Source of the DNA: a virus
Direction: 5' to 3' (one strand)
DNA length: 22,737 nt
IMG/VR virus record: IMGVR_UViG_3300037358_000021
Coordinates: 1 to 22,737 of that record
The position numbers and the translations under genes are program-made. Positions 4,282 to 22,559 of the stretch are shown here, piece after piece (the stretch's first letter is position 1; each line of letters begins with the position of its first letter). Below the pieces are notes generated by a model. It did no database searches and was not told the origin of the DNA. It saw only the letters and a program-made list of their open reading frames with translations.

Positions 4282-5007
4282 TTAATTTACGCCGAAGATG
4301 CTGTAATTATAAGTTGAAGTGTCATTAGCAGTTCCCACAACGGTGAAGTAGACACCAGCCGATATTGTAGTTAGGTGAGGCTGCGCACCGACCGCACTTT
4401 GGGCGGTGTTAAGACTAATCGCCACAGTATCAGTAATCGCAATTGTGGTATTAGTCACCGTTACGGCAGTTGCACCGTTCAGGTTGAATGTGCCTGCGCG
4501 GCCTGCGCCGGTTGCGCTTGCCTTTTGGACAAAGCCTGTGCCGACCAAAGTTTCAGTGATATTGCCGGCAAAGCTGCCAGCCACACCTACATCGCCCGTA
4601 AACCATGCACCGCCTTTGGCAGAATTAAATAAGGCACTTGCTCCCACTGGGAGAGCAAGGGCGGTGGATCCCGCAACGCCGTTAATTGTATCCGAGCTAC
4701 CCTGTGCTCCATAAATGGATAAAGAATTTGCGCCATTATTTATAACTATCGTAAATTGATAGGGAACATTTGGACCTCCCGTAGAAAGCGGAAGATTAAC
4801 TCCCGTGCTGGCAGTCACCGTGTCAACTTCATTATAAACAGAATTTAACTGAGTGGCCGTTGCCTGGGTTGTGCCTGCGGCCACAATTCCATAAGTTGAA
4901 GAAGAATTATTCATGTTATAAATGGAACTGGCAATCTGTGCGGCATCAGCAAGACGAAATGAGGGATCGAGCTTAATGAGTGGATTTGGCTTAGTTGTGG
5001 CAACCAT
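4282..5007 (-). CDS. Beta-rich virion protein, tandem paralog (decoration or fibre type)
   Basis: 241 residues, ATG with GGAG 9 bases upstream. Composition is rich in Ala, Gly, Ser, Thr and Asn with few charged residues, typical of extended beta-structured phage surface proteins. It shares long blocks with the gene directly upstream: GIVAAGTTQATATQLNS near residue 39, ASTGVNLP near 67, a GNITET segment near 148, a TNTT.AITD strand and a terminal ISAGVYFTVVGTA...YNY..GVN. The two genes are one base apart. Neither has a known catalytic motif. Position between the gp4-like adaptor and gp10-like hub suggests a head decoration or tail component. I cannot assign a precise role. Confidence 0.6.
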   Translation of the reverse strand: MVATTKPNPLIKLDPSFRLADAAQIASSIYNMNNSSSTYGIVAAGTTQATATQLNSVYNEVDTVTASTGVNLPLSTGGPNVPYQFTIVINNGANSLSIYGAQGSSDTINGVAGSTALALPVGASALFNSAKGGAWFTGDVGVAGSFAGNITETLVGTGFVQKASATGAGRAGTFNLNGATAVTVTNTTIAITDTVAISLNTAQSAVGAQPHLTTISAGVYFTVVGTANDTSTYNYSIFGVN

Positions 5008-5008
5008 A

Positions 5009-5761
5009 TTAATTTACTCCAATCATTGTGTAGTTATAGAGAGAAGTATCACTGGCAGTTCCCACCACTGTGAAGTAGACACCAGCAGATATTGTCGAAA
5101 CGTGGGGAACCGCACCAACAGTACCAGAGGGGGTATTAACGCTGAACCCGATAAAGTCTGTAATCGCCACCGTTGTATTAGTGACCGTCACCGCTGTTGC
5201 TCCATTAAGAGTGAAAGATCCAGCCCTCGCAGTTCCTGCGCCAGACTTCTGAACGAAGCCAGAACCGACAGTTGTTTCTGTGATATTTCCAGCAGCACCA
5301 ATAGTAGTTGCAGTTAGTGCACCAAAGGCAGCAGCTGCACCAGCACCTGTGGGACTAAACCATGCGCCAACTTTGGTAGTAAAGTACATGACGCTCGAAC
5401 CCGCTGCCTGTGTAACACCAGTTGCGCCAGCCGTTCCATTAATAGTATCGCTCTGACTTTGAGCAGAATAAACAGTCAACGTATTCGCACCATTATTTGT
5501 GACAAAGCAAAATTGGCAAGGAGTAGAATGCTTTCCGCCCGAATAGGGGAGATTGACACCAGTGCTCGCGGCAACTGTGTCAACCTGATTGAGCAAGGAA
5601 TTTAATTGAGTGGCAGTCGCCTGAGTAGTCCCAGCGGCAACGATACCGTAAGTAGAAAGGCCGGAATTCATGTATAAAAGTCCGTTGCGGATATAGCCCA
5701 TATCTGCAAGGCGGTAGCCGCCATCACTCGGTGCAAGTTCAATTGGTTTAGTGGTCGACAT
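5009..5761 (-). CDS. Beta-rich virion protein, first of a tandem paralog pair
   Basis: 250 residues, ATG preceded by AGGAG at 8 bases. It is Ala/Gly/Ser/Thr-rich with short beta-prone strands and no enzyme motif. Its N-terminus (IELAPSDGGYRLADMGYIRN) and C-terminus (SAGVYFTVVGTASDTSLYNY) match the downstream neighbour closely, while a segment around residues 130-155 (GAGAAAAFGALTATTIGAAG) is longer here. The pair probably arose by duplication and then drifted. The C-terminal ISAGVYFTVVGTA pattern resembles phage structural proteins annotated only as hypothetical. A decoration or fibre role is inferred from composition and context. Confidence 0.6.
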   Translation of the reverse strand: MSTTKPIELAPSDGGYRLADMGYIRNGLLYMNSGLSTYGIVAAGTTQATATQLNSLLNQVDTVAASTGVNLPYSGGKHSTPCQFCFVTNNGANTLTVYSAQSQSDTINGTAGATGVTQAAGSSVMYFTTKVGAWFSPTGAGAAAAFGALTATTIGAAGNITETTVGSGFVQKSGAGTARAGSFTLNGATAVTVTNTTVAITDFIGFSVNTPSGTVGAVPHVSTISAGVYFTVVGTASDTSLYNYTMIGVN

Positions 5762-7276: not shown

Positions 7277-8875
7277 CTAGATGGCATCCGCGATTGCGAC
7301 TGCCCATTCCGGTCTCACGTAGAGATAACCGTATAAAACATCAAGGCGGGTAATCAATTGATCAGTACCTACGGTATAATCCGTGATCATCCTCATCGAG
7401 ATGTTGTCGAAGGATTCGCGTGCACCTTCAACAATGCCCTGCTGCGGCAGAACGAGATCCGCCGTAGCCATCGTGACTGCTTCCGGAGTATAGGCGATAT
7501 TCTTGCGGAATATCGAACTTGCCGGAGTCGCCAGAAGGATTGTGGCACCGTTGACGGGGCTGGAGTCGACCGTCTGATACTGCACCTGCGGACCACCGGC
7601 GACGCCCGTCGAAGACGGAACGATAGCCGGGTAGATCGAAAGTGAAGTGGCATTGGTCGCAGCGGCAGCGGTAACTACGAACTGGCGAAGCTGACCAGTC
7701 GACTGCTTAGTAATGCGATTTACTGCATTCACGTTTGCAATCGTGATGATATCTCCCAGGGTAAGTGTCCCAGTGATAGCATTAGTCGTCAGCGTAAGGC
7801 CGGTCTGACCCGCGCCGTTGACGGTTCCAGCGGTAAACGTGCCAGTCGTGTGTTTCAACACGGTCTGATCCATCATCCACTCGAAACCAATCGCCTGCTG
7901 CATCGTACCCGTAGTGTACTGACGGGAGATGTCGCTGATCGGGTTAAGCAGCCCGCTCAGAACGCCCACAGTGCGCGCCTGGGTATACGGATCCTGAACG
8001 ATCTTACGACGTCCAGTCGGAGCAGAATTCACATCCAGCAACGCACCGGCAGTAAGGAAGGTCGACAAAATCGGGGAGATAATGTTACCATTAGCATCCG
8101 TGTTGCTGACCAAGTTACACACGCCGCCATCCACACCGCTCATGATGTTGTAAGCAATAGCGCCTGCGAGGTTGTTGATGCAAGGTGCGAGAATCCGTTC
8201 GGAGTAATCATCAAGACTCATCGTCCTGTCAACAGAACTGAACGAAACGTCGACACCCTGCTGCGTGGCGACAACCAAAGTTGTTGACTGCTCACTAGTA
8301 TCTTGGATTTGCGCAGCTGCACCTGTGCGAACGGTAAAGTCGTTGGGCAGACGGACACGAAGCTGTGTGCCGATCTTAGCTCCGACCTTAGCAAAAGAAT
8401 CATCGTCAATTTTTTCAAAAAGTTTCGTTAAAACTTTTTCGCTACCTAGCTGCTGCATATTTCTATGCAGATAAGACTATATCATAATCATTTCTGATTT
8501 TGCGTGCTTCGGATCACTTGATCCTACTCCCACAAGGGGATAGTCGTTGAACCTTTTCCATTTCAGGAACTCGGATGCTGATTGCCCAATACCTATTATT
8601 TTCAAACATTCACGCTTGGCCTTTTGGCCTACGTTGTAGTTAATAAGTCTCTAAGGGGTTTCCAGCAGTTCTCGCAATTTAACAACAACTTGATGACCTG
8701 CTAAGTCCTTGTTATATAACAAAATTGTTGATCTATATTCTGAATAAATGCATTCACTTTTTAATTAAATTCATAAAATATAGATAGTAAACACCAATGC
8801 CTAGTATATAGTGTTTTTCCAGAGTCTGACCGCTTCTCTGGTAATCATGTTTATGGTCAAGATTGAATTTGCCAT
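7277..8875 (-). CDS. Major capsid (coat) protein, P22 gp5-like, split by a group I intron
   Basis: Exon 1 is 8875-8810: ATG with AAAGGA 8 bases upstream, encoding MANSILTINMITREAVRLWK plus Asn-Thr, and then hits TAG three codons later if unspliced. Exon 2 begins at about 8449 (or 8441) and ends at 7277. The spliced product is about 409-412 residues. Exon 2 starts with FEKIDDDSFAKVGAKIG, then VRLPNDFTVRTGAAAQIQD, TQQGVDVSFSS and LDDYSERILAP, the block order I know from P22-type coat proteins. Homologs of this type begin MANxLLTIxMITREALRxL, exactly what exon 1 supplies and exon 2 lacks. An ATG at 8458 in the exon 2 frame lies inside the intron P9 hairpin and has no Shine-Dalgarno, so I reject it as the start. 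Function: HK97-fold shell subunit assembled on the scaffold encoded upstream. Confidence 0.9.
8450..8809 (-). ncRNA. Group I self-splicing intron (IA-like) inside the capsid gene
   Basis: On the minus strand the core elements occur in order: P at 8680-8665 (AAATTGCGAGAACTGC), Q at 8586-8570 (GGCAATCAGCATCCGAG), R at 8553-8538 (GGTTCAACGACTATCC) and S at 8484-8472 (ATGATATAGTCTT). R and S pair as P7 (ACTAT/ATAGT), and P and Q can pair as P4 (ATTGC/GCAAT). P1 is exon AAACACT with intron GGTGTTT, seven pairs ending in the conserved U-G. P2 is ATCTATATT/AATATAGAT. Two small hairpins lie between R and S, one with a GAAA loop, as in subgroup IA. P9 (8470-8453) is a 7-bp stem with a GAAA loop. The 5' site follows U8810. 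The 3' site is either after G8450 (in frame with U8810) or after G8442, which gives better P9.0, P10 and homolog length but needs cleavage after C8811. There is no ORF inside. Confidence 0.9.
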
Positions 8876-9009
8876 TGTGGCATTCCTTTGAATTGTTAAT
8901 GAAAGTTGGAATGAACCATTAGCAGGAATTTATTAGAAGAGCAGCTAAGTAGTTTTTGTTTAGTACCTATCTCTAAACGCTTAACGGTAATCATGAAGGA
9001 TAAAATACA

Positions 9010-10217: not shown

Positions 10218-10292
10218 TGGTAGCCGAGGATCGAATTGCACGATCGACCTTCTGGTTATGAGCCAGACGAGATACTACTTCTCCACTCGGCA
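10218..10292 (-). tRNA. tRNA-Met (anticodon CAT), CCA encoded
   Basis: A full 75-base cloverleaf fits: acceptor TGCCGAG/CTCGGCT (six pairs; the first position is T opposite T), D stem GAGA/TCTC, anticodon stem TCTGG/CCAGA with loop CTCATAA, T stem GATCG/CGATC with loop TGCAATT, then A73 and genomic CCA. Oddities: the D loop is short and lacks the usual GG, and position 55 of the T loop is G in place of T. If the host modifies C34 to lysidine it would read Ile codons; the sequence alone does not decide. Confidence 0.8.
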
Positions 10293-11819: not shown

Positions 11820-12062
11820 TTATTTATTCTTCTGTTGATCTGAATAATAGGGATCTTTCGACTCTGCCATTTTGTGGCCGGGGGATTCGTGTTCTTTTAA
11901 TCCTTCAGGAAAACTATCTTCGACAAATCCTCTTATATTTCTTACCCCAGAATATTTATGATGAGTAGCACTCTTTTCATGCGACACTTCTGGGTAGTGC
12001 TTTAGGAGCTCATGATTATCTTCATCTGAGATAGTTTTATGAGGAACCGAAAATTCTTTCAT
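11820..12062 (-). CDS. Small protein with both shared tail motifs (KEHESPG and DPYYSDQQKNK)
   Basis: 80 residues, ATG at 12062. The body (MKEFSVPHKTISDEDNHELL, then HYPEVSHEKSATHHKYSG) is His-rich and unlike its neighbours. The C-terminus combines EGLKEHESPGHKMAESK with DPYYSDQQKNK, so both signatures of the array occur in tandem, as also in the gene at 14858-15046. It follows a broken copy of the gene at 12643, whose residual frame ends at 12064 just before this start. No known domain is recognised. Confidence 0.6.
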   Translation of the reverse strand: MKEFSVPHKTISDEDNHELLKHYPEVSHEKSATHHKYSGVRNIRGFVEDSFPEGLKEHESPGHKMAESKDPYYSDQQKNK

Positions 12063-12065
12063 ATC

Positions 12066-12149
12066 AATTAATCCTCATTGTTGACATACCCAGTTGTTCG
12101 GCGGTTTTGCCTTCGATTGCTTGAGCGGCGACACGTCTGTCGATATTCC
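12066..12149 (-). repeat. 84-base direct repeat, copy A (remnant of the 12643 gene)
   Basis: It matches 12645-12728 with a single mismatch. In the frame of the parent gene it reads NIDRRVAAQAIEGKTAEQLG and ends ATGAGGATTAATTGA, corresponding to the parent C-terminus, but that frame has no start codon upstream. It is the scar of a duplication or of a recombination that removed the rest of the gene copy. Confidence 0.85.
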
Positions 12150-12197
12150 AATACCGTGTGGGCGAAGATCGCTTTGGACATCTTTGAGGGTTTTCAT
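12075..12197 (-). CDS. 40-residue ORF crossing the repeat in another frame (doubtful gene)
   Basis: ATG at 12197 follows the preceding TAA directly. The first 17 codons (MKTLKDVQSDLRPHGIG) look like a genuine N-terminus, but from 12149 on the frame runs through the duplicated 84-base segment in a register different from the parent gene, giving an unlikely basic, Pro-rich end. It may be a truncated gene whose 3' part was replaced by the repeat. Whether it is still translated is open. Confidence 0.3.
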   Translation of the reverse strand: MKTLKDVQSDLRPHGIGISTDVSPLKQSKAKPPNNWVCQQ

Positions 12198-12353
12198 TTA
12201 TTTATTCTTCTGACTATCGTTATACACCGGATCCATCGACCCTGCACCTTTTTCGCGTGCGCTTGCGGCTAATGCTTCGCGAGCAGCCTTCGCCTGTTCA
12301 ACAGCGGAAGAGTGCTTGATTATGAGGCCGAGAAGGGGAGAGGGTTTGGTCAT
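12198..12353 (-). CDS. Small protein ending DPVYNDSQKNK
   Basis: 51 residues, ATG at 12353 overlapping the upstream stop as ATGA, so translation is probably coupled. It begins MTKPSPLLGLIIKHSSAVEQ, has an Ala-rich helix (AKAAREALAASAREKGAG), and ends SMDPVYNDSQKNK, the second shared tail of the array. The stretch before the tail (helix, then G-x-G/GKGS, then x-DP) resembles the endings of the genes at 14252 and 15048 (AEELRxxGKGSxDPxY). No function is recognised. Confidence 0.6.
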   Translation of the reverse strand: MTKPSPLLGLIIKHSSAVEQAKAAREALAASAREKGAGSMDPVYNDSQKNK

Positions 12354-12589
12354 TTGTTCGGCTTTCCATCGTTACCAGCCCAATAAGGATGTTCATGTTC
12401 CTTATACGGACGATCACGAGGTGACTTTTCTCTCACATGAAAGTTGTCATCTTTATATTTCTTGGCTAATTTTGCGGAAGCAAGATTAGCATCAATTGTA
12501 TTAGAATGCTCAGAAAAATGACCTGGAGACATTCCGCCGCCGTCTCTCATTGCGTATGCATGATCAACTACATATCTAGTGTTACTCAT
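12350..12589 (-). CDS. Small phage protein with KEHEHPYW segment
   Basis: 79 residues, ATG with AGAGG 6 bases upstream. The sequence includes VVDHAYAMRDGGGMSPGHFS near residues 7-26, a helix NLASAKLAKKYKDDNFHVRE near 35-54, and a tail PYKEHEHPYWAGNDGKPNK, an apparent variant of the KEHQKPEW tag with a short extension. It follows a small hairpin with a run of nine C at 12623-12631. It is soluble, with no transmembrane segment. Function unknown. Confidence 0.58.
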   Translation of the reverse strand: MSNTRYVVDHAYAMRDGGGMSPGHFSEHSNTIDANLASAKLAKKYKDDNFHVREKSPRDRPYKEHEHPYWAGNDGKPNK

Positions 12590-12642
12590 AAATTACCTCT
12601 AATAGTGTATGGGGGTATTATGCCCCCCCCCATGAGGAGCCT

Positions 12643-12990
12643 TTAATTAATACTCATTGTTGACATACCCAGTTGTTCGGCGGTTTTGCCTTCGATTGCT
12701 TGAGCGGCGACACGTCTGTCGATATTCCCCGGCGCACTGGCATGTTTGAGCAGTGCATCGAATATTTGTTCTTTTTCCCATTCAGGCGTGGTCGACATTC
12801 CCAGCATGCGGGACAATGTGAGTCGGGCTGATTCTACAAAGTGGTGCCACTCACGACGAATGAACTTTTTCTGGCTTGGATAAAACTTATAGAAAGTGTC
12901 ATCATGCGCGGCCTCTTCATAAAAACACGCAGCCATTTCCTTTGCAGTTTCAGCAAGGAGAACATGGGTGAATTTTTGATTAGTGCTCAT
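12643..12990 (-). CDS. Unknown 115-residue phage protein of the head module
   Basis: ATG at 12990 overlaps the stop of the preceding gene as ATGA; the longer TTG start at 13005 is rejected. The protein is helical: KFTHVLLAETAKEMAACFYE near residues 6-25, FYPSQKKFIRREWHHFVESA near 37-56, and a C-terminal AAQAIEGKTAEQLGMSTMSIN. The pattern of Tyr-Pro-Ser followed by a basic helix with REWxxFVxxAR resembles conserved hypothetical proteins near phage head genes, but I cannot name a role. Its last 76 bases recur exactly at 12074-12149. It has neither shared C-terminal tag, which sets it apart from most of the array. Confidence 0.62.
   Translation of the reverse strand: MSTNQKFTHVLLAETAKEMAACFYEEAAHDDTFYKFYPSQKKFIRREWHHFVESARLTLSRMLGMSTTPEWEKEQIFDALLKHASAPGNIDRRVAAQAIEGKTAEQLGMSTMSIN
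12645..12728 (-). repeat. 84-base direct repeat, copy B (3' end of an intact gene)
   Basis: Matches 12066-12149 with one mismatch. Recombination between the two copies would delete 579 bases holding the small genes at 12075, 12198 and 12350. Confidence 0.85.
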
Positions 12991-13337
12991 ATATTCGATG
13001 CCCAAGTTAGAATGGAATAATAAAATTTAGGAAGCGGACTGATTTCAATGTAGAATTCATTTCCTTGCGAAGCTGCAGCTTGGAGGGTGTATTGTTGAGC
13101 ATCCTTCACGGAAGAAAATGCATAGGTGCTGTTGGCGTTGATTAGCGCATCCACCTGATACATCGCGGCACCAGAACCATCGGGCGCGGTTCCTGCAAAT
13201 GACTTACTGAAATAAGTCATAGGAAACTGAACATTGTTCACGCCGCTTGTGTTACTGGCATTTATCTGCGCGTTAATCTGGGCTTGCGCCGGTGCGTTGA
13301 ATGTTTGCGTGGGGTAGACGGAGGTTTGGTTGATCAT
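12987..13337 (-). CDS. Virion-associated protein, paralog of the preceding gene
   Basis: 116 residues, ATG at 13337 four bases after the upstream stop. The N-terminal half is Asn/Gln/Ala-rich (FNAPAQAQINAQINASNTSG). The second half carries GTAPDGSGAAMYQVDALINA near residues 48-67 and a KDAQQYTLQAAASQGNEFY segment near 78-96. These align with GAAPDSSGKTMIQFEALVNN and KDAQVALLGVAESWGFANY of the upstream gene, so the two are tandem paralogs. They are low in charge, like beta-structured virion proteins. No fold is assigned with certainty. Confidence 0.58.
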   Translation of the reverse strand: MINQTSVYPTQTFNAPAQAQINAQINASNTSGVNNVQFPMTYFSKSFAGTAPDGSGAAMYQVDALINANSTYAFSSVKDAQQYTLQAAASQGNEFYIEISPLPKFYYSILTWASNI

Positions 13338-13341
13338 TTTT

Positions 13342-13728
13342 CTACCAGGCTAATATTGCACAATTGGCGGAGGTTGTATTAGTGGATAAGGCATAGTTGG
13401 CAAATCCCCAAGATTCTGCAACACCCAGGAGAGCCACCTGGGCATCTTTCTGAGTAGGATATCCTGTAGCAGTGTTATTGACTAGGGCTTCAAACTGAAT
13501 CATCGTTTTGCCAGAACTATCAGGAGCCGCACCTGCGTTTACCTGAATATTAATTCTAGGAGTAGTGGAATTCAAGATCTGCGTACCATTACCGATGACC
13601 GTATTAGTGCCAGCTGCAACATTCGTTGTAATAGTGGATGTAGACACCGCAAGGCCGCTCGGAGTATAAAGTACAGCCGGATTGATTGACACAACATTGC
13701 CGCTTCCGCTTCCTACGCCTAGTGTCAT
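13342..13728 (-). CDS. Virion-associated protein, first of a tandem pair
   Basis: 128 residues, ATG at 13728 one base after the upstream TGA. A Ser/Thr/Val/Asn-rich N-terminal region (about 1-60, for example GVGSGSGNVVSINPAVLYTP) is followed by RINIQVNAGAAPDSSGKTMI near 58-77 and a KDAQVALLG helix near 94. It ends TTSANCAILAW without the shared basic tag. It is a clear paralog of the next gene, with a longer N-terminal beta region. The role is probably structural, by composition and context only. Confidence 0.58.
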   Translation of the reverse strand: MTLGVGSGSGNVVSINPAVLYTPSGLAVSTSTITTNVAAGTNTVIGNGTQILNSTTPRINIQVNAGAAPDSSGKTMIQFEALVNNTATGYPTQKDAQVALLGVAESWGFANYALSTNTTSANCAILAW

Positions 13729-13729
13729 G

Positions 13730-14002
13730 TCAGCCGCCCCATTCTGGTTTCTGGTGTTCTTTTATAGAATATTGTCCAGATTTATATCCGCGAGCTTCAG
13801 CATATTCTCTGGCGTCTTTTTCTGATTTAAATTTTCCACGATTTGTGTATGATCCCCCACCTTGTGAATCAGTATGAAGTTCATGATTAAATGATTCTTC
13901 GGCACGCTCAGCGCGAGTAGGAAACCCAGCAGCTTTACGCCTCTTGTCCAATTCTCTTTCTATATTTTCTGTTGAGTCAACAGGATAAATTAAATCACTC
14001 AT
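13730..14002 (-). CDS. Small protein ending in the KEHQKPEWGG tag
   Basis: 90 residues, ATG at 14002 five bases downstream of the previous stop. It includes a charged helix (ENIERELDKRRKAAGFPTRA near residues 13-32) and a compact C-terminal unit GKFKSEKDAREYAEARGYKS near 56-75 that looks like a small alpha/beta module of the SPOR-like kind (inference). It closes with QYSIKEHQKPEWGG. The tag codons are nearly identical in DNA to those of the genes at 14007 and 15268. No signal peptide is seen. Role unknown; the shared tag suggests a common partner. Confidence 0.6.
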   Translation of the reverse strand: MSDLIYPVDSTENIERELDKRRKAAGFPTRAERAEESFNHELHTDSQGGGSYTNRGKFKSEKDAREYAEARGYKSGQYSIKEHQKPEWGG

Positions 14003-14006
14003 CTAC

Positions 14007-14246
14007 TTATCCACCCCATTCTGGTTTTTGGTGTTCTTTGATAAAATCAGCGCCAAGAGGTTTTGAATTATGTTCATCCTCACGCGCCTGATGTTCTTTC
14101 ATTTGACGCTTGGCCTCTTTATACAATTTCTCATTTACTGGAACACCGGCCCAAGCAGACTTGGCGTTTGATTTTTCCTCAGGTGTTTTAGCATTTTGAT
14201 TTGCTCGAAGAACAGATTTTATATGGCCAAGATGATCATATGACAT
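14007..14246 (-). CDS. Small helical protein ending in the KEHQKPEWGG tag
   Basis: 79 residues, ATG at 14246 five bases after the upstream stop. The body is helical and charged (HIKSVLRANQNAKTPEEKSN near 8-27, LYKEAKRQMKEHQAREDEHN near 41-60), and an internal MKEHQ precedes the final DFIKEHQKPEWGG. The last 28 coding bases are identical to those of the gene at 15268, while the bodies are unrelated. This points to exchange of tags by recombination. Function unknown. Confidence 0.6.
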   Translation of the reverse strand: MSYDHLGHIKSVLRANQNAKTPEEKSNAKSAWAGVPVNEKLYKEAKRQMKEHQAREDEHNSKPLGADFIKEHQKPEWGG

Positions 14247-14251
14247 ATGTG

Positions 14252-14491
14252 CTACTTCACCTTCCTACAATCGCCATACTTCGGATCCACGCTTCCTTTT
14301 CCACCCAAGCGCAATTCTTCTGCGGCCAGGTGCGCAGGATCACGTTCGCGCGATTCTCCAGAAAGAATCTTGCCGGTTTCTTTATAGTTCTCATTCAGCG
14401 GTGTGCGCGAATACTTATCGTTATCATGGGAATATGCGAGACCTTCTGGGGCATCCGTCATCTCGGTGAGCGCATTAGGATTCTGAGTCAT
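14252..14491 (-). CDS. Small protein ending GKGSVDPKYGDCRKVK
   Basis: 79 residues, ATG at 14491 five bases after the upstream stop. It starts MTQNPNALTEMTDAPEGLAY, has a polar centre, then AAEELRLGGKGSVDPKYGD. The ending matches AAEELRHEGKGSSDPMYNNS of the gene at 15048 and more loosely the DPxYxxQQKNK tails. It is therefore a divergent form of the second shared tail, with the helix before it conserved too. No catalytic motif is visible. Confidence 0.58.
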   Translation of the reverse strand: MTQNPNALTEMTDAPEGLAYSHDNDKYSRTPLNENYKETGKILSGESRERDPAHLAAEELRLGGKGSVDPKYGDCRKVK

Positions 14492-14496
14492 ATATT

Positions 14497-14709
14497 TTAT
14501 TTCTTTTTCATATTTTCTAATGCATTATTGTACCCTCTATGATACTCGGGATGAAATTTTTCACCTGTTTCTTCTGTGTAATCCTTGGGATCCCAAGGAT
14601 TACCTGGATCTTGCCTAGCTCCCGTTCGATATCCTTTTTTATATTCCCGCTGGTACTCAGATTTTTCATGTTCTTTCTGCTGCCACTCAGGCTTTTCATG
14701 TTCTTTCAT
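14497..14709 (-). CDS. RMF/CrpP-like small protein with duplicated KEHEKPEW tag at its N-terminus
   Basis: 70 residues, ATG at 14709 sharing one base with the upstream stop (TAATG). Unlike its relatives the tag stands at the start and twice: MKEHEKPEW then QKEHEKSEY. The rest has the pattern YxxGYxTGxxxDPGNPWDP followed by a second HPEYHRGYNNA, which resembles the Rmf/CrpP type of small proteins (paired aromatic-x-x-Gly-aromatic motifs around an Asn-Pro-Trp core). Family members bind ribosomes or modify antibiotics; for phage copies no role is established that I know of. The resemblance is by eye. Confidence 0.5.
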   Translation of the reverse strand: MKEHEKPEWQQKEHEKSEYQREYKKGYRTGARQDPGNPWDPKDYTEETGEKFHPEYHRGYNNALENMKKK

Positions 14710-14858
14710 TAGTCTTCTCCAATTCTCTCGTTATAGTTTTTATCATCCTGAACAACCTGTTCAGGCGAACGTGTCTCTGCCCCTGGGAATCCACAATATT
14801 TACAAGGTGTAAAATCCCATTGACTTTCGCAAGCATCGCAACGTGAACAGCGTGCCAT
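14709..14858 (-). CDS. 49-residue zinc-ribbon protein
   Basis: ATG at 14858 overlaps the upstream TAA by one base, and the stop shares a base with the next ATG. Cysteines at positions 4, 7, 10, 19 and 22 give CxxC...CxxC knuckles (MARCSRCDACESQWDFTPCK, then YCGFPG), consistent with one bound zinc. The C-terminal half (about 27-49) is acidic and probably flexible. Such ribbons often mediate protein or nucleic-acid contacts. It has neither shared tag. Confidence 0.62.
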   Translation of the reverse strand: MARCSRCDACESQWDFTPCKYCGFPGAETRSPEQVVQDDKNYNERIGED

Positions 14859-15046
14859 TATTTATTCTTCTGTTGATGCCTATAATAAGGATCCTCTGAT
14901 TTCTGATGTTCTTTTAATCCACTGTAAAATTCTTTAGTCATTTTATCAAGGCCTTCTACTTTAGTGCCTTTATCGGGAAGAGAATTTCTTTTACTTTTTG
15001 CTAATTCCTCATCAAACCATTTTCCATAATCTGCCCTATTTCCCAT
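14858..15046 (-). CDS. Small protein ending in the fused tag KEHQKSEDPYYRHQQKNK
   Basis: 62 residues. ATG at 15046 is chosen because it lies one base after the upstream TGA; a longer frame to 15217 would be fully buried in the previous gene. The body is DYGKWFDEELAKSKRNSLPD and KVEGLDKMTKEFYSG. The ending joins both array signatures without a linker: KEHQKSE directly followed by DPYYRHQQKNK. This makes it the best evidence that the two tails belong to one functional system. No other domain is recognised. Confidence 0.6.
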   Translation of the reverse strand: MGNRADYGKWFDEELAKSKRNSLPDKGTKVEGLDKMTKEFYSGLKEHQKSEDPYYRHQQKNK

Positions 15047-15047
15047 A

Positions 15048-15266
15048 TCATTTATCCTTCTTACTATTGTTATACATCGGATCACTTGATCCCTTCCCCT
15101 CATGGCGAAGTTCTTCGGCAGCGGCGACGATTTTGGATTGTTGGGTGGTGGAGGGTTTGCGACCTTCATACTTAAAGGTCTCAAGTGGATCGCCACTTTT
15201 ATTTTTTGTTGCCTCAAAATGTTTTTGATATGCTTTATATTCGTGCCTTGTTTTAAACATCGTCAT
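15048..15266 (-). CDS. Small basic protein ending GKGSSDPMYNNSKKDK
   Basis: 72 residues from ATG at 15266, five bases after a GGTGG site and overlapping the previous gene only at its stop region; a GTG at 15275 is also possible. It reads MTMFKTRHEYKAYQKHFEAT, a Lys/Thr-rich middle, then IVAAAEELRHEGKGSSDPMY. The ending is the second shared tail in a variant closest to the gene at 14252. Soluble; role unknown. Confidence 0.58.
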   Translation of the reverse strand: MTMFKTRHEYKAYQKHFEATKNKSGDPLETFKYEGRKPSTTQQSKIVAAAEELRHEGKGSSDPMYNNSKKDK

Positions 15267-15267
15267 A

Positions 15268-15468
15268 TCATCCACCCCATTCTGGTTTTTGGTGTTCTTG
15301 AATATGCTCGCGTCTTATTTTTCTCGTAGTTGCATCTTGATTCTCCGCATATTCGCGACGCTTCTTTTTATTTTCCTCGGAATTAATACCATCAGAATCA
15401 TATTTGCCCATTGAATTGTCATTGTAGAGTTTTGTATTTATTTTGTTCATCGGAATTGGTTTTGACAT
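15268..15468 (-). CDS. Small charged protein ending in the KEHQKPEWGG-type tag
   Basis: 66 residues, ATG at 15468 one base after the stop of a 22-codon ORF. It starts MSKPIPMNKINTKLYNDNSM and has a strongly charged helix EENKKKRREYAENQDATTRK near 31-50 before the final EHIQEHQKPEWGG. The final 28 coding bases are identical to the tag of the gene at 14007. Together with the 22-codon ORF it opens the array downstream of the portal. No domain is recognised. Confidence 0.6.
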   Translation of the reverse strand: MSKPIPMNKINTKLYNDNSMGKYDSDGINSEENKKKRREYAENQDATTRKIRREHIQEHQKPEWGG

Positions 15469-21920: not shown

Positions 21921-22559
21921 TTAGGCACTCAAAATTCCTCTTCGCTTATCCCACCAAAGTTGAACGGCAATCTTATTGTTAGCCTTACGCTCAGGAGTAT
22001 GCTTCACCCCTGCGAGTTTTGCACTTATACTTTTCTTCTTTTCTTCAGAACAAGGCTGCCCCATTAAAGCAGCACTAATCTTCGCCTTTGTTTCTTCTTT
22101 ACAAGGACAACCCTTATGAACTAAACTTAATTTTAAAAGAGTTTCCGGAGATGCTTTCTTCCCTTTTCTTGCCCTCACTGAATTAGCAATACATTGGGGA
22201 GAAGGTTTTCTGCCTTTGAGCGTTCTTCCTACTTTTTCAGCAACACTTTTTGTCGACATGGGGCTAACTTCACCGCCATTTGTAATATTATAGCCATATC
22301 GTCGATCTTGCGTCCTGTACTTAGCAATCGCGGCTATCTCCAAATTAGCAATATAGGATCTTTCCCCTGCAACAAGAATTTCTAGCTTAACATTTTCTGC
22401 ACCGTATTTTCGAATCGCATTATAGACAGAAATTTTATATTTTCCAGAAGAAACTTTACAGTGTGCTCTAAATCTTCCCTTTGGATCATTGCTTATTCCA
22501 AAATACAATTTTCCATTGGGAAACACTAATCGGTATAGCCAACAGAGCTTTATTATCAC
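21921..22559 (-). CDS. GIY-YIG homing endonuclease with NUMOD3-type repeats
   Basis: 212 residues. GTG start at 22559 overlaps the upstream stop as GTGA, so it relies on translational coupling. The nuclease domain reads WLYRLVFPNGKLYFG at residues 7-21 with arginine R29 eight residues after the YFG glycine, AIRKYGAENVKLEIL near 49-63, a glutamate in NLEIAAIAKYRT, and YGYNITNGGE. Residues of about 110-195 hold repeated NUMOD3-like units (GRKPSPQCIANSVRARKGKK, then GQPCSEEKKKSISAKLAGVK and HTPERKANNKI), which bind DNA. No intron signature was seen around it, so it appears free-standing. It differs from the plus-strand GIY-YIG gene in domain order and repeats, pointing to separate arrival. Confidence 0.85.
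   Translation of the reverse strand: MIIKLCWLYRLVFPNGKLYFGISNDPKGRFRAHCKVSSGKYKISVYNAIRKYGAENVKLEILVAGERSYIANLEIAAIAKYRTQDRRYGYNITNGGEVSPMSTKSVAEKVGRTLKGRKPSPQCIANSVRARKGKKASPETLLKLSLVHKGCPCKEETKAKISAALMGQPCSEEKKKSISAKLAGVKHTPERKANNKIAVQLWWDKRRGILSA

What the first reader, a model, noticed from the sequence alone, without database searches (positions are those of the whole stretch)
8441..8875. Group I intron splits the major capsid gene after codon 22
The capsid frame at 7277-8458 lacks the family N-terminus; that peptide (MANSILTINMITREAVRLWK...) is encoded at 8875-8810 behind its own ribosome-binding site. Between them lie P, Q, R and S core elements in order, P1 with seven pairs and terminal U-G, P7 pairing of R and S, and a GAAA-capped P9. 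An annotation without splicing would call a truncated capsid and lose the real start. Introns are known in phage polymerases, terminases and nucleotide-metabolism genes; a P22-like coat gene interrupted this early is unusual to my knowledge.
Basis: partly seen in the sequence, partly recalled or inferred. Interest (0 to 1): 0.88.

Follow-up and report, generated by a model that had tools for sequence, protein, structure and literature searches.

The report
Coat gene with a core-less intron
A phage's main shell gene is cut in two places, once by a normal self-splicing intron and once by a 55-base insert that keeps only the splice-site guide and has no catalytic part, so it probably depends on its neighbour to be removed.

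Summary
The coat gene has three exons: E1 8875-8810, a 31-nt mini-exon E2 8754-8724 (NAFIQNIDQQ+T), and E3 8406-7277. Together they encode a 408-aa P22-type coat protein that aligns end to end with uninterrupted relatives. Intron 2 (8723-8407, 317 nt) carries the whole ribozyme core. Intron 1 (8809-8755) is only 55 nt and has no core. The relative L002 has two such core-less introns (46 and 38 nt) around a 7-nt exon, beside two complete introns. Its protein is in frame only if both are removed, and 0 of 400,000 shuffles reproduced that solution. Both sites hold full-length group I introns in other relatives. About ten of roughly 295 distinct coat loci carry introns, up to five per gene. Most likely mechanism: the neighbouring core excises the mini-introns, like an engineered "spliceozyme". 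No RNA evidence was available.

The parts
8810..8875 (-). Exon 1 of the coat gene (22 codons, MANSILTINMITREAVRLWKNT), preceded by AAAGGAA ribosome-binding site
   Evidence: Matches the N-terminus of uninterrupted relatives; 15 nt differences to L002, all synonymous
8755..8809 (-). Intron 1: 55-nt core-less mini-intron, flanked by U and ending in G
   Evidence: Boundaries set by protein homology and frame; no Rfam group I match in 8725-9005
8789..8800 (-). Internal guide sequence of intron 1, GCAUU-GGUGUUU: P1 with exon 1 (AAACACU), P10 with exon 2 (AAUGC)
   Evidence: 12 contiguous pairs; only place in the window on either strand with more than 10; same guide block in L002
8724..8754 (-). Exon 2, 31-nt mini-exon encoding NAFIQNIDQQ plus the first base of a Tyr codon
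   Evidence: Matches family consensus N-x-F-I/L-Q-N-I/V-D-x-Q-Y
8407..8723 (-). Intron 2: complete group I intron, 317 nt, no ORF
   Evidence: RF00028 64.2 bits; conserved structure with compensatory changes in P1, P3, P9, P9.2 across five introns
8683..8689 (-). Guide of intron 2, GUUGUUG, pairs with exon 2 end CAACAAU (P1); UCAUC at 8692-8696 pairs with exon 3 GAUGA (P10)
   Evidence: P1 covaries with L002 CAACAGU:GCUGUUG
7277..8406 (-). Exon 3 of the coat gene (rest of the protein, to the stop codon)
   Evidence: Joined exons give 408 aa, phrog_283 major head protein over profile positions 1-381 of 385, 177.9 bits
9010..9900 (+). Free-standing GIY-YIG homing endonuclease gene, divergent from and 134 bp upstream of the coat start
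   Evidence: Pfam PF01541, PHROG homing endonuclease; homologue in the same place and orientation in L002 (35% identity)

Best explanation
The coat transcript carries two group I introns of unequal kind. Intron 2 is a complete self-splicing intron at a Tyr codon (Q-T|AC-D). Intron 1, 31 nt upstream at KNT|NAF, is a remnant of a former complete intron. It has lost the catalytic core but keeps what a core needs to find it: the U.G-marked 5' splice site, an internal guide that pairs with both exons (P1 and P10), and a terminal G. It is removed at the RNA level, most likely because the core of intron 2 (in cis, or in trans from another copy) docks intron 1's P1, cuts after the U with guanosine, and joins exon 1 to exon 2 at the terminal G. 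Intron 2 then splices itself out to give the 408-aa coat protein. Shown by sequence: exon map, frame, core location, guide pairings, conservation in L002. Inferred: that intron 1 is removed as RNA, and which core does it. The adjacent GIY-YIG gene probably spread these inserts, which would block its target site (inference).
For: (1) Exons 66+31+1130 nt give one 409-codon frame (408 aa plus stop) and a protein that aligns end to end with one gap to relative L085. (2) Intron 2 core: RF00028 64.2 bits; 37 of 73 predicted pairs show compensatory change over five introns, including P9.2, which places the true 3' end. (3) Intron 1 guide: 7-bp P1 plus 5-bp P10. Dinucleotide shuffles of intron 1 reach 12 contiguous pairs in 0.12%, and 7+5 in 0.005%. 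(4) L002, 251 nt differences in 375 codons of exon 3, has the same guide block while the rest of intron 1 does not align well. (5) L002 is in frame only with two core-less introns of 46 and 38 nt. There is exactly one coding-compatible partition, it satisfies both guides (8+5 and 8+6 pairs), and 0 of 400,000 shuffles do. (6) Both sites hold full introns elsewhere: L032 at KNT|N; L100 and L379 at NA-T|TT. (7) All 19 mapped introns have U before and G at the end; the mini-introns have among the strongest P1+P10. (8) Exons 1 and 2 evolve under purifying selection in both phages (exon 1: 10 synonymous, 0 nonsynonymous codons), so the inserts must be bypassed or removed. (9) Engineered group I spliceozymes remove 64- and 100-nt core-less introns in E. 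coli, with about 30% of random interior sequences favourable (PMC4094466).
Against: No transcript or protein data. Only two genomes carry core-less introns, three cases in all. Engineered spliceozymes also needed a P9.2 helix with the substrate, and I found no convincing equivalent in intron 1. The 3' splice site of intron 1 lies upstream of the core rather than downstream, a geometry for which I know no natural example. The intron 1 hairpin is not unusually stable (z about 0).
Confidence: 0.68

Rival explanations
1. Intron 1 is not spliced. [quoted passage not shown]
For: Similar size, hairpin at the take-off point, stop codon shortly after, neighbouring homing endonuclease gene. PMC5009743 describes the T4 case and its proposed origin.
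Against: T4 bypassing uses matched take-off and landing codons. Here ACT faces GTG, and in L002 ACT faces TTG. The second L002 junction falls inside a codon (T|TT). Bypassing does not explain P10 pairing with the downstream exon, nor full introns at the same sites.
Confidence: 0.12
2. Intron 1 is removed by splicing, but by a host or phage protein machinery or by another group I RNA in trans, not by the intron 2 core.
For: Degenerate lichen rDNA group I introns that cannot self-splice are removed, which its authors take to imply a dedicated machinery (PMC8527467).
Against: A complete group I core sits 31 nt (window) and 24 nt (L002) downstream of the nearest mini-intron in both genomes; I know of no such protein factor in phages.
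Confidence: 0.12
3. Intron 1 is a dead remnant. The coat protein is made without exon 1, from the GTG at 8757-8755, or the gene is broken.
For: A GTG precedes exon 2 in frame.
Against: No clear ribosome-binding site at that GTG; exon 1 has one. Exon 1 is identical in protein but differs at 15 nt between window and L002. The N-terminus is conserved across uninterrupted relatives.
Confidence: 0.05
4. One reading: one intron from 8809 to about 8453.
For: The joined frame is open and the P1 is real.
Against: It discards a 31-nt stretch encoding NAFIQNIDQQ and keeps intron 3' sequence (P9.1, P9.2) as coding. Lower family score (671.7 versus 703.5 bits), no P10 at that 3' end.
Confidence: 0.02

Closest known systems
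Group I introns in phage structural genes (mycobacteriophage LittleE capsid, BAKA/Optimus tail genes; PMC3706429)
   Same: Group I type splicing in a capsid gene; U before and G at the end of the intron
   Different: Single introns; LittleE's carries a homing endonuclease. Here there are two introns, a 31-nt exon, and one intron without a core, in a P22-type coat gene
Spliceozymes, engineered Tetrahymena ribozymes (PMC4094466)
   Same: A group I core removes a 64- or 100-nt core-less intron defined by P1 and 3' end elements
   Different: Engineered; the guide sits in the ribozyme and a P9.2 helix is formed in trans. Here the guide sits in the mini-intron
T4 gene 60 50-nt bypass segment (PMC5009743)
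   Same: Short non-coding insert in a phage gene near a homing endonuclease gene, proposed to be a degenerate group I intron
   Different: Skipped by the ribosome with matched codons; here the codons do not match and both exons pair with the guide
Degenerate lichen rDNA group I introns (PMC8527467)
   Same: Group I introns that cannot splice on their own yet are removed
   Different: About 300 nt in the case shown, in eukaryotic rRNA; they lack about 100 nt, not the whole core

Membership tests
Group I introns (intron 2, 8723-8407) | Covariance-model match including P3, P7, P9 | tested here: met
   RF00028 64.2 bits over model positions 1-253
Group I introns (intron 2, 8723-8407) | U at the end of the 5' exon paired with G of the guide; G at the intron end | tested here: met
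   CAACAAU:GUUGUUG, ends in AUUG; P10 UCAUC:GAUGA
Group I introns (intron 2, 8723-8407) | Splicing restores the host gene | tested here: met
   Predicted 408-aa coat protein aligns end to end with relatives, provided intron 1 is also removed; not shown in RNA
Group I introns (intron 1, 8809-8755) | P1 with U.G, P10, terminal G | tested here: met
   7+5 pairs, intron ends GUG
Group I introns (intron 1, 8809-8755) | Catalytic core (P3-P8) | tested here: not met
   55 nt in all; no RF00028 match up to E 10, same in L002
Group I introns (intron 1, 8809-8755) | Removal by two transesterifications using guanosine | not testable with these tools
   Needs RNA from infected cells or in vitro transcripts
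Translational bypass element (T4 gene 60 type) | Matched take-off and landing codons | tested here: not met
   ACT versus GTG (window), ACT versus TTG (L002)
Translational bypass element (T4 gene 60 type) | Stop codon directly after the take-off codon | tested here: not met
   Stop lies two codons further on (KNT-I-Y-stop)
Translational bypass element (T4 gene 60 type) | Nascent-peptide signal | not tested
   No comparison made
P22-type coat protein | Match to PF11651 / phrog_283 | tested here: met

The most novel reading that the evidence does not exclude
Phage coat genes carry a natural class of non-autonomous group I introns, 38-55 nt long and made only of a guide and splice sites, which are excised by the ribozyme core of a neighbouring complete intron: a natural counterpart of the engineered spliceozyme, and a possible step between group I introns and bypass elements such as that of T4 gene 60.
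Probability: 0.55. Interest if true: 0.92.

Novelty: new variant of a known kind. Interest (0 to 1): 0.8.

Why it matters
If one ribozyme core serves two or three sets of splice sites in nature, a self-splicing intron can support dependent introns that have lost everything but the guide, an RNA parallel to the spliceosome. Such inserts are invisible to covariance-model searches and to gene callers, so more may exist beside known phage introns. The coat genes here are also an intron hot spot with up to five introns and exons as short as 7 nt, which makes the idea directly testable on short transcripts.

Tried and rejected
A direct exon 1 to exon 3 splice: frameshift, 84-aa product. L002 as a frameshifted gene or sequencing error: first assumed because exon 2 seemed one base short; rejected when a second core-less intron at the L100/L379 intron site restored the frame. 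Assembly artefact: unlikely, since an independent metagenome contig (L002) has the same insert. Search for relatives of the window's GIY-YIG gene in IMG/VR: none by pattern search. Exact search for the intron 1 guide block in IMG/VR: only the L002 contig. Stability of the intron 1 hairpin: not above shuffles. P1 of L100 b, c, d and L102 d, and of L032, is only 4 bp under my boundaries; these boundaries may be off by a few bases. Papers: no earlier report of a core-less group I intron of this kind found in the held library, which lacks most subscription journals.

Full report
Observation. Rfam RF00028 matches window 8740-8453 on the minus strand with 64.2 bits. The coat frame 7277-8458 starts without the family N-terminus, and that N-terminus is encoded at 8875-8810 behind AAAGGAA.

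Exon map. Uninterrupted relatives in IMG/VR read ...REAVRLWKNTNQFIQHIDMQYDDSFAKTGAKIG. Joining 8875-8810, 8754-8724 and 8406-7277 gives 66+31+1130 = 1227 nt, 408 residues plus stop. Against phrog_283 it gains the N-terminus (161.1 to 177.9 bits, profile start from 25 to 1).

Intron 2. It spans 8723-8407. P1 is CAACAAU:GUUGUUG, and P10 is UCAUC:GAUGA two bases into exon 3. Five introns from the family (window, L002 twice, L102, L089) fold to one structure with compensatory changes at 37 of 73 pairs.

Intron 1. Between exon 1 and exon 2 lie 55 nt (8809-8755), too short for a core, and Rfam finds none there. Its guide GCAUU-GGUGUUU pairs without a break with AAACACU^AAUGC, the joined exon ends: seven P1 pairs ending in U.G, five P10 pairs, intron end G. 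Shuffles of the 55 nt reach 12 contiguous pairs in 0.12% and the 7+5 pattern in 0.005%. In the window, both strands, no other place has more than ten. The junction was fixed by protein homology, not by the pairing.

L002. This 79-kb IMG/VR contig has the closest coat gene (91% identity in exon 3). It has complete introns at codon 8 (AT|A) and at the intron 2 site. At first its exon 2 looked one base short. It is in frame if two more inserts are removed: 46 nt (ACT|...TTG|AATGCCT) and 38 nt (AATGCCT|...ATG|TTATCC), which leaves a 7-nt exon. The result is again 408 aa, with the same first 36 residues as the window. Exactly one partition of the segment meets the coding requirement as I coded it (Asn codon, any codon, T, with G before each exon), it meets both guide requirements, and no shuffle of 400,000 does. 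I noticed this partition after seeing the alignment, so the test is post hoc, but the coding requirement alone already selects it. The 38-nt insert has P1 AAUGCCU:GGGCAUU and P10 UUAUCC:GGAUAA. Between window and L002 the guide block of intron 1 is conserved (CTARGCATTGGTGTTT) while the rest aligns poorly. Exon 1 differs at 15 nt with no amino-acid change, and the seven codons of exon 2 that were compared at 4 nt with none. The coding function of exons 1 and 2 has therefore been maintained with the inserts in place.

Sites and spread. The intron 1 site holds a complete intron in L032. The 38-nt site holds complete introns in L100 (49.5 bits) and, by my reading, L379. The intron 2 site is also used in L102 and, with an HNH gene inside, in L060. 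L361 has an intron with an internal reading frame one codon further on. L100 and L102 have five introns each, with exons as short as 17 nt. Of about 295 distinct coat loci fetched, about ten lineages carry introns. In seven contigs searched whole, the RF00028 matches lie in the coat gene. The cultured relative PAE2 has an uninterrupted coat gene. All 19 mapped introns have U before and G at the end; for several of them that rule helped me to choose the boundary.

Mechanism. From general knowledge, group I cores recognise P1 by shape and can act on splice sites given in trans. Engineered spliceozymes remove 64- and 100-nt core-less introns from mRNA in E. coli, with about 30% of random interior sequences favourable (PMC4094466). 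I infer that the intron 2 core does the same to intron 1. [quoted passage not shown] Matched codons are absent here, and bypassing does not explain P10. A GIY-YIG gene stands upstream of the coat gene in both genomes, which fits spread by homing with the inserts as target-site protection; this is inference.

Limits. There are no RNA or protein data. Core-less introns are seen in two genomes only. No P9.2-like contact between intron 1 and the core was found. The literature library is partial.

Verdict. The group I intron is real. The 55-nt core-less intron beside it is the finding.

Noticed in passing
L102 2578-5175 and L100 1572-4110: P22-type coat genes with five group I introns each, exons down to 17-18 nt, clustered at the 3' end of the gene.
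   Followed up: partly
L379 1400-2010, L381 1400-2010, L361 1133-2010: Further coat genes with (by my reading) three, two and one group I introns near the 5' end; the L361 intron holds a long reading frame that looks like an HNH endonuclease (not searched).
   Followed up: partly
L060 2250-2991: Group I intron at exactly the window's intron 2 site, carrying an HNH_3 endonuclease gene (Pfam PF13392).
   Followed up: yes
window 21921-22559: Second GIY-YIG endonuclease gene, with a NUMOD3 motif, at the other end of the window.
   Followed up: no
window 10218-10292: tRNA-Met (CAT) between the coat region and the scaffold gene.
   Followed up: no
window 11820-15468: A run of small ORFs that share a C-terminal motif like KEHQKPEWGG, apparently diverged tandem copies.
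   Followed up: no
window 4282-5761: Two adjacent paralogous ORFs (STYGIVAAGTTQATATQLNS repeat region), likely a tandem duplication.
   Followed up: no
L002 4281-5267: Endonuclease VII family gene directly downstream of the coat gene.
   Followed up: no
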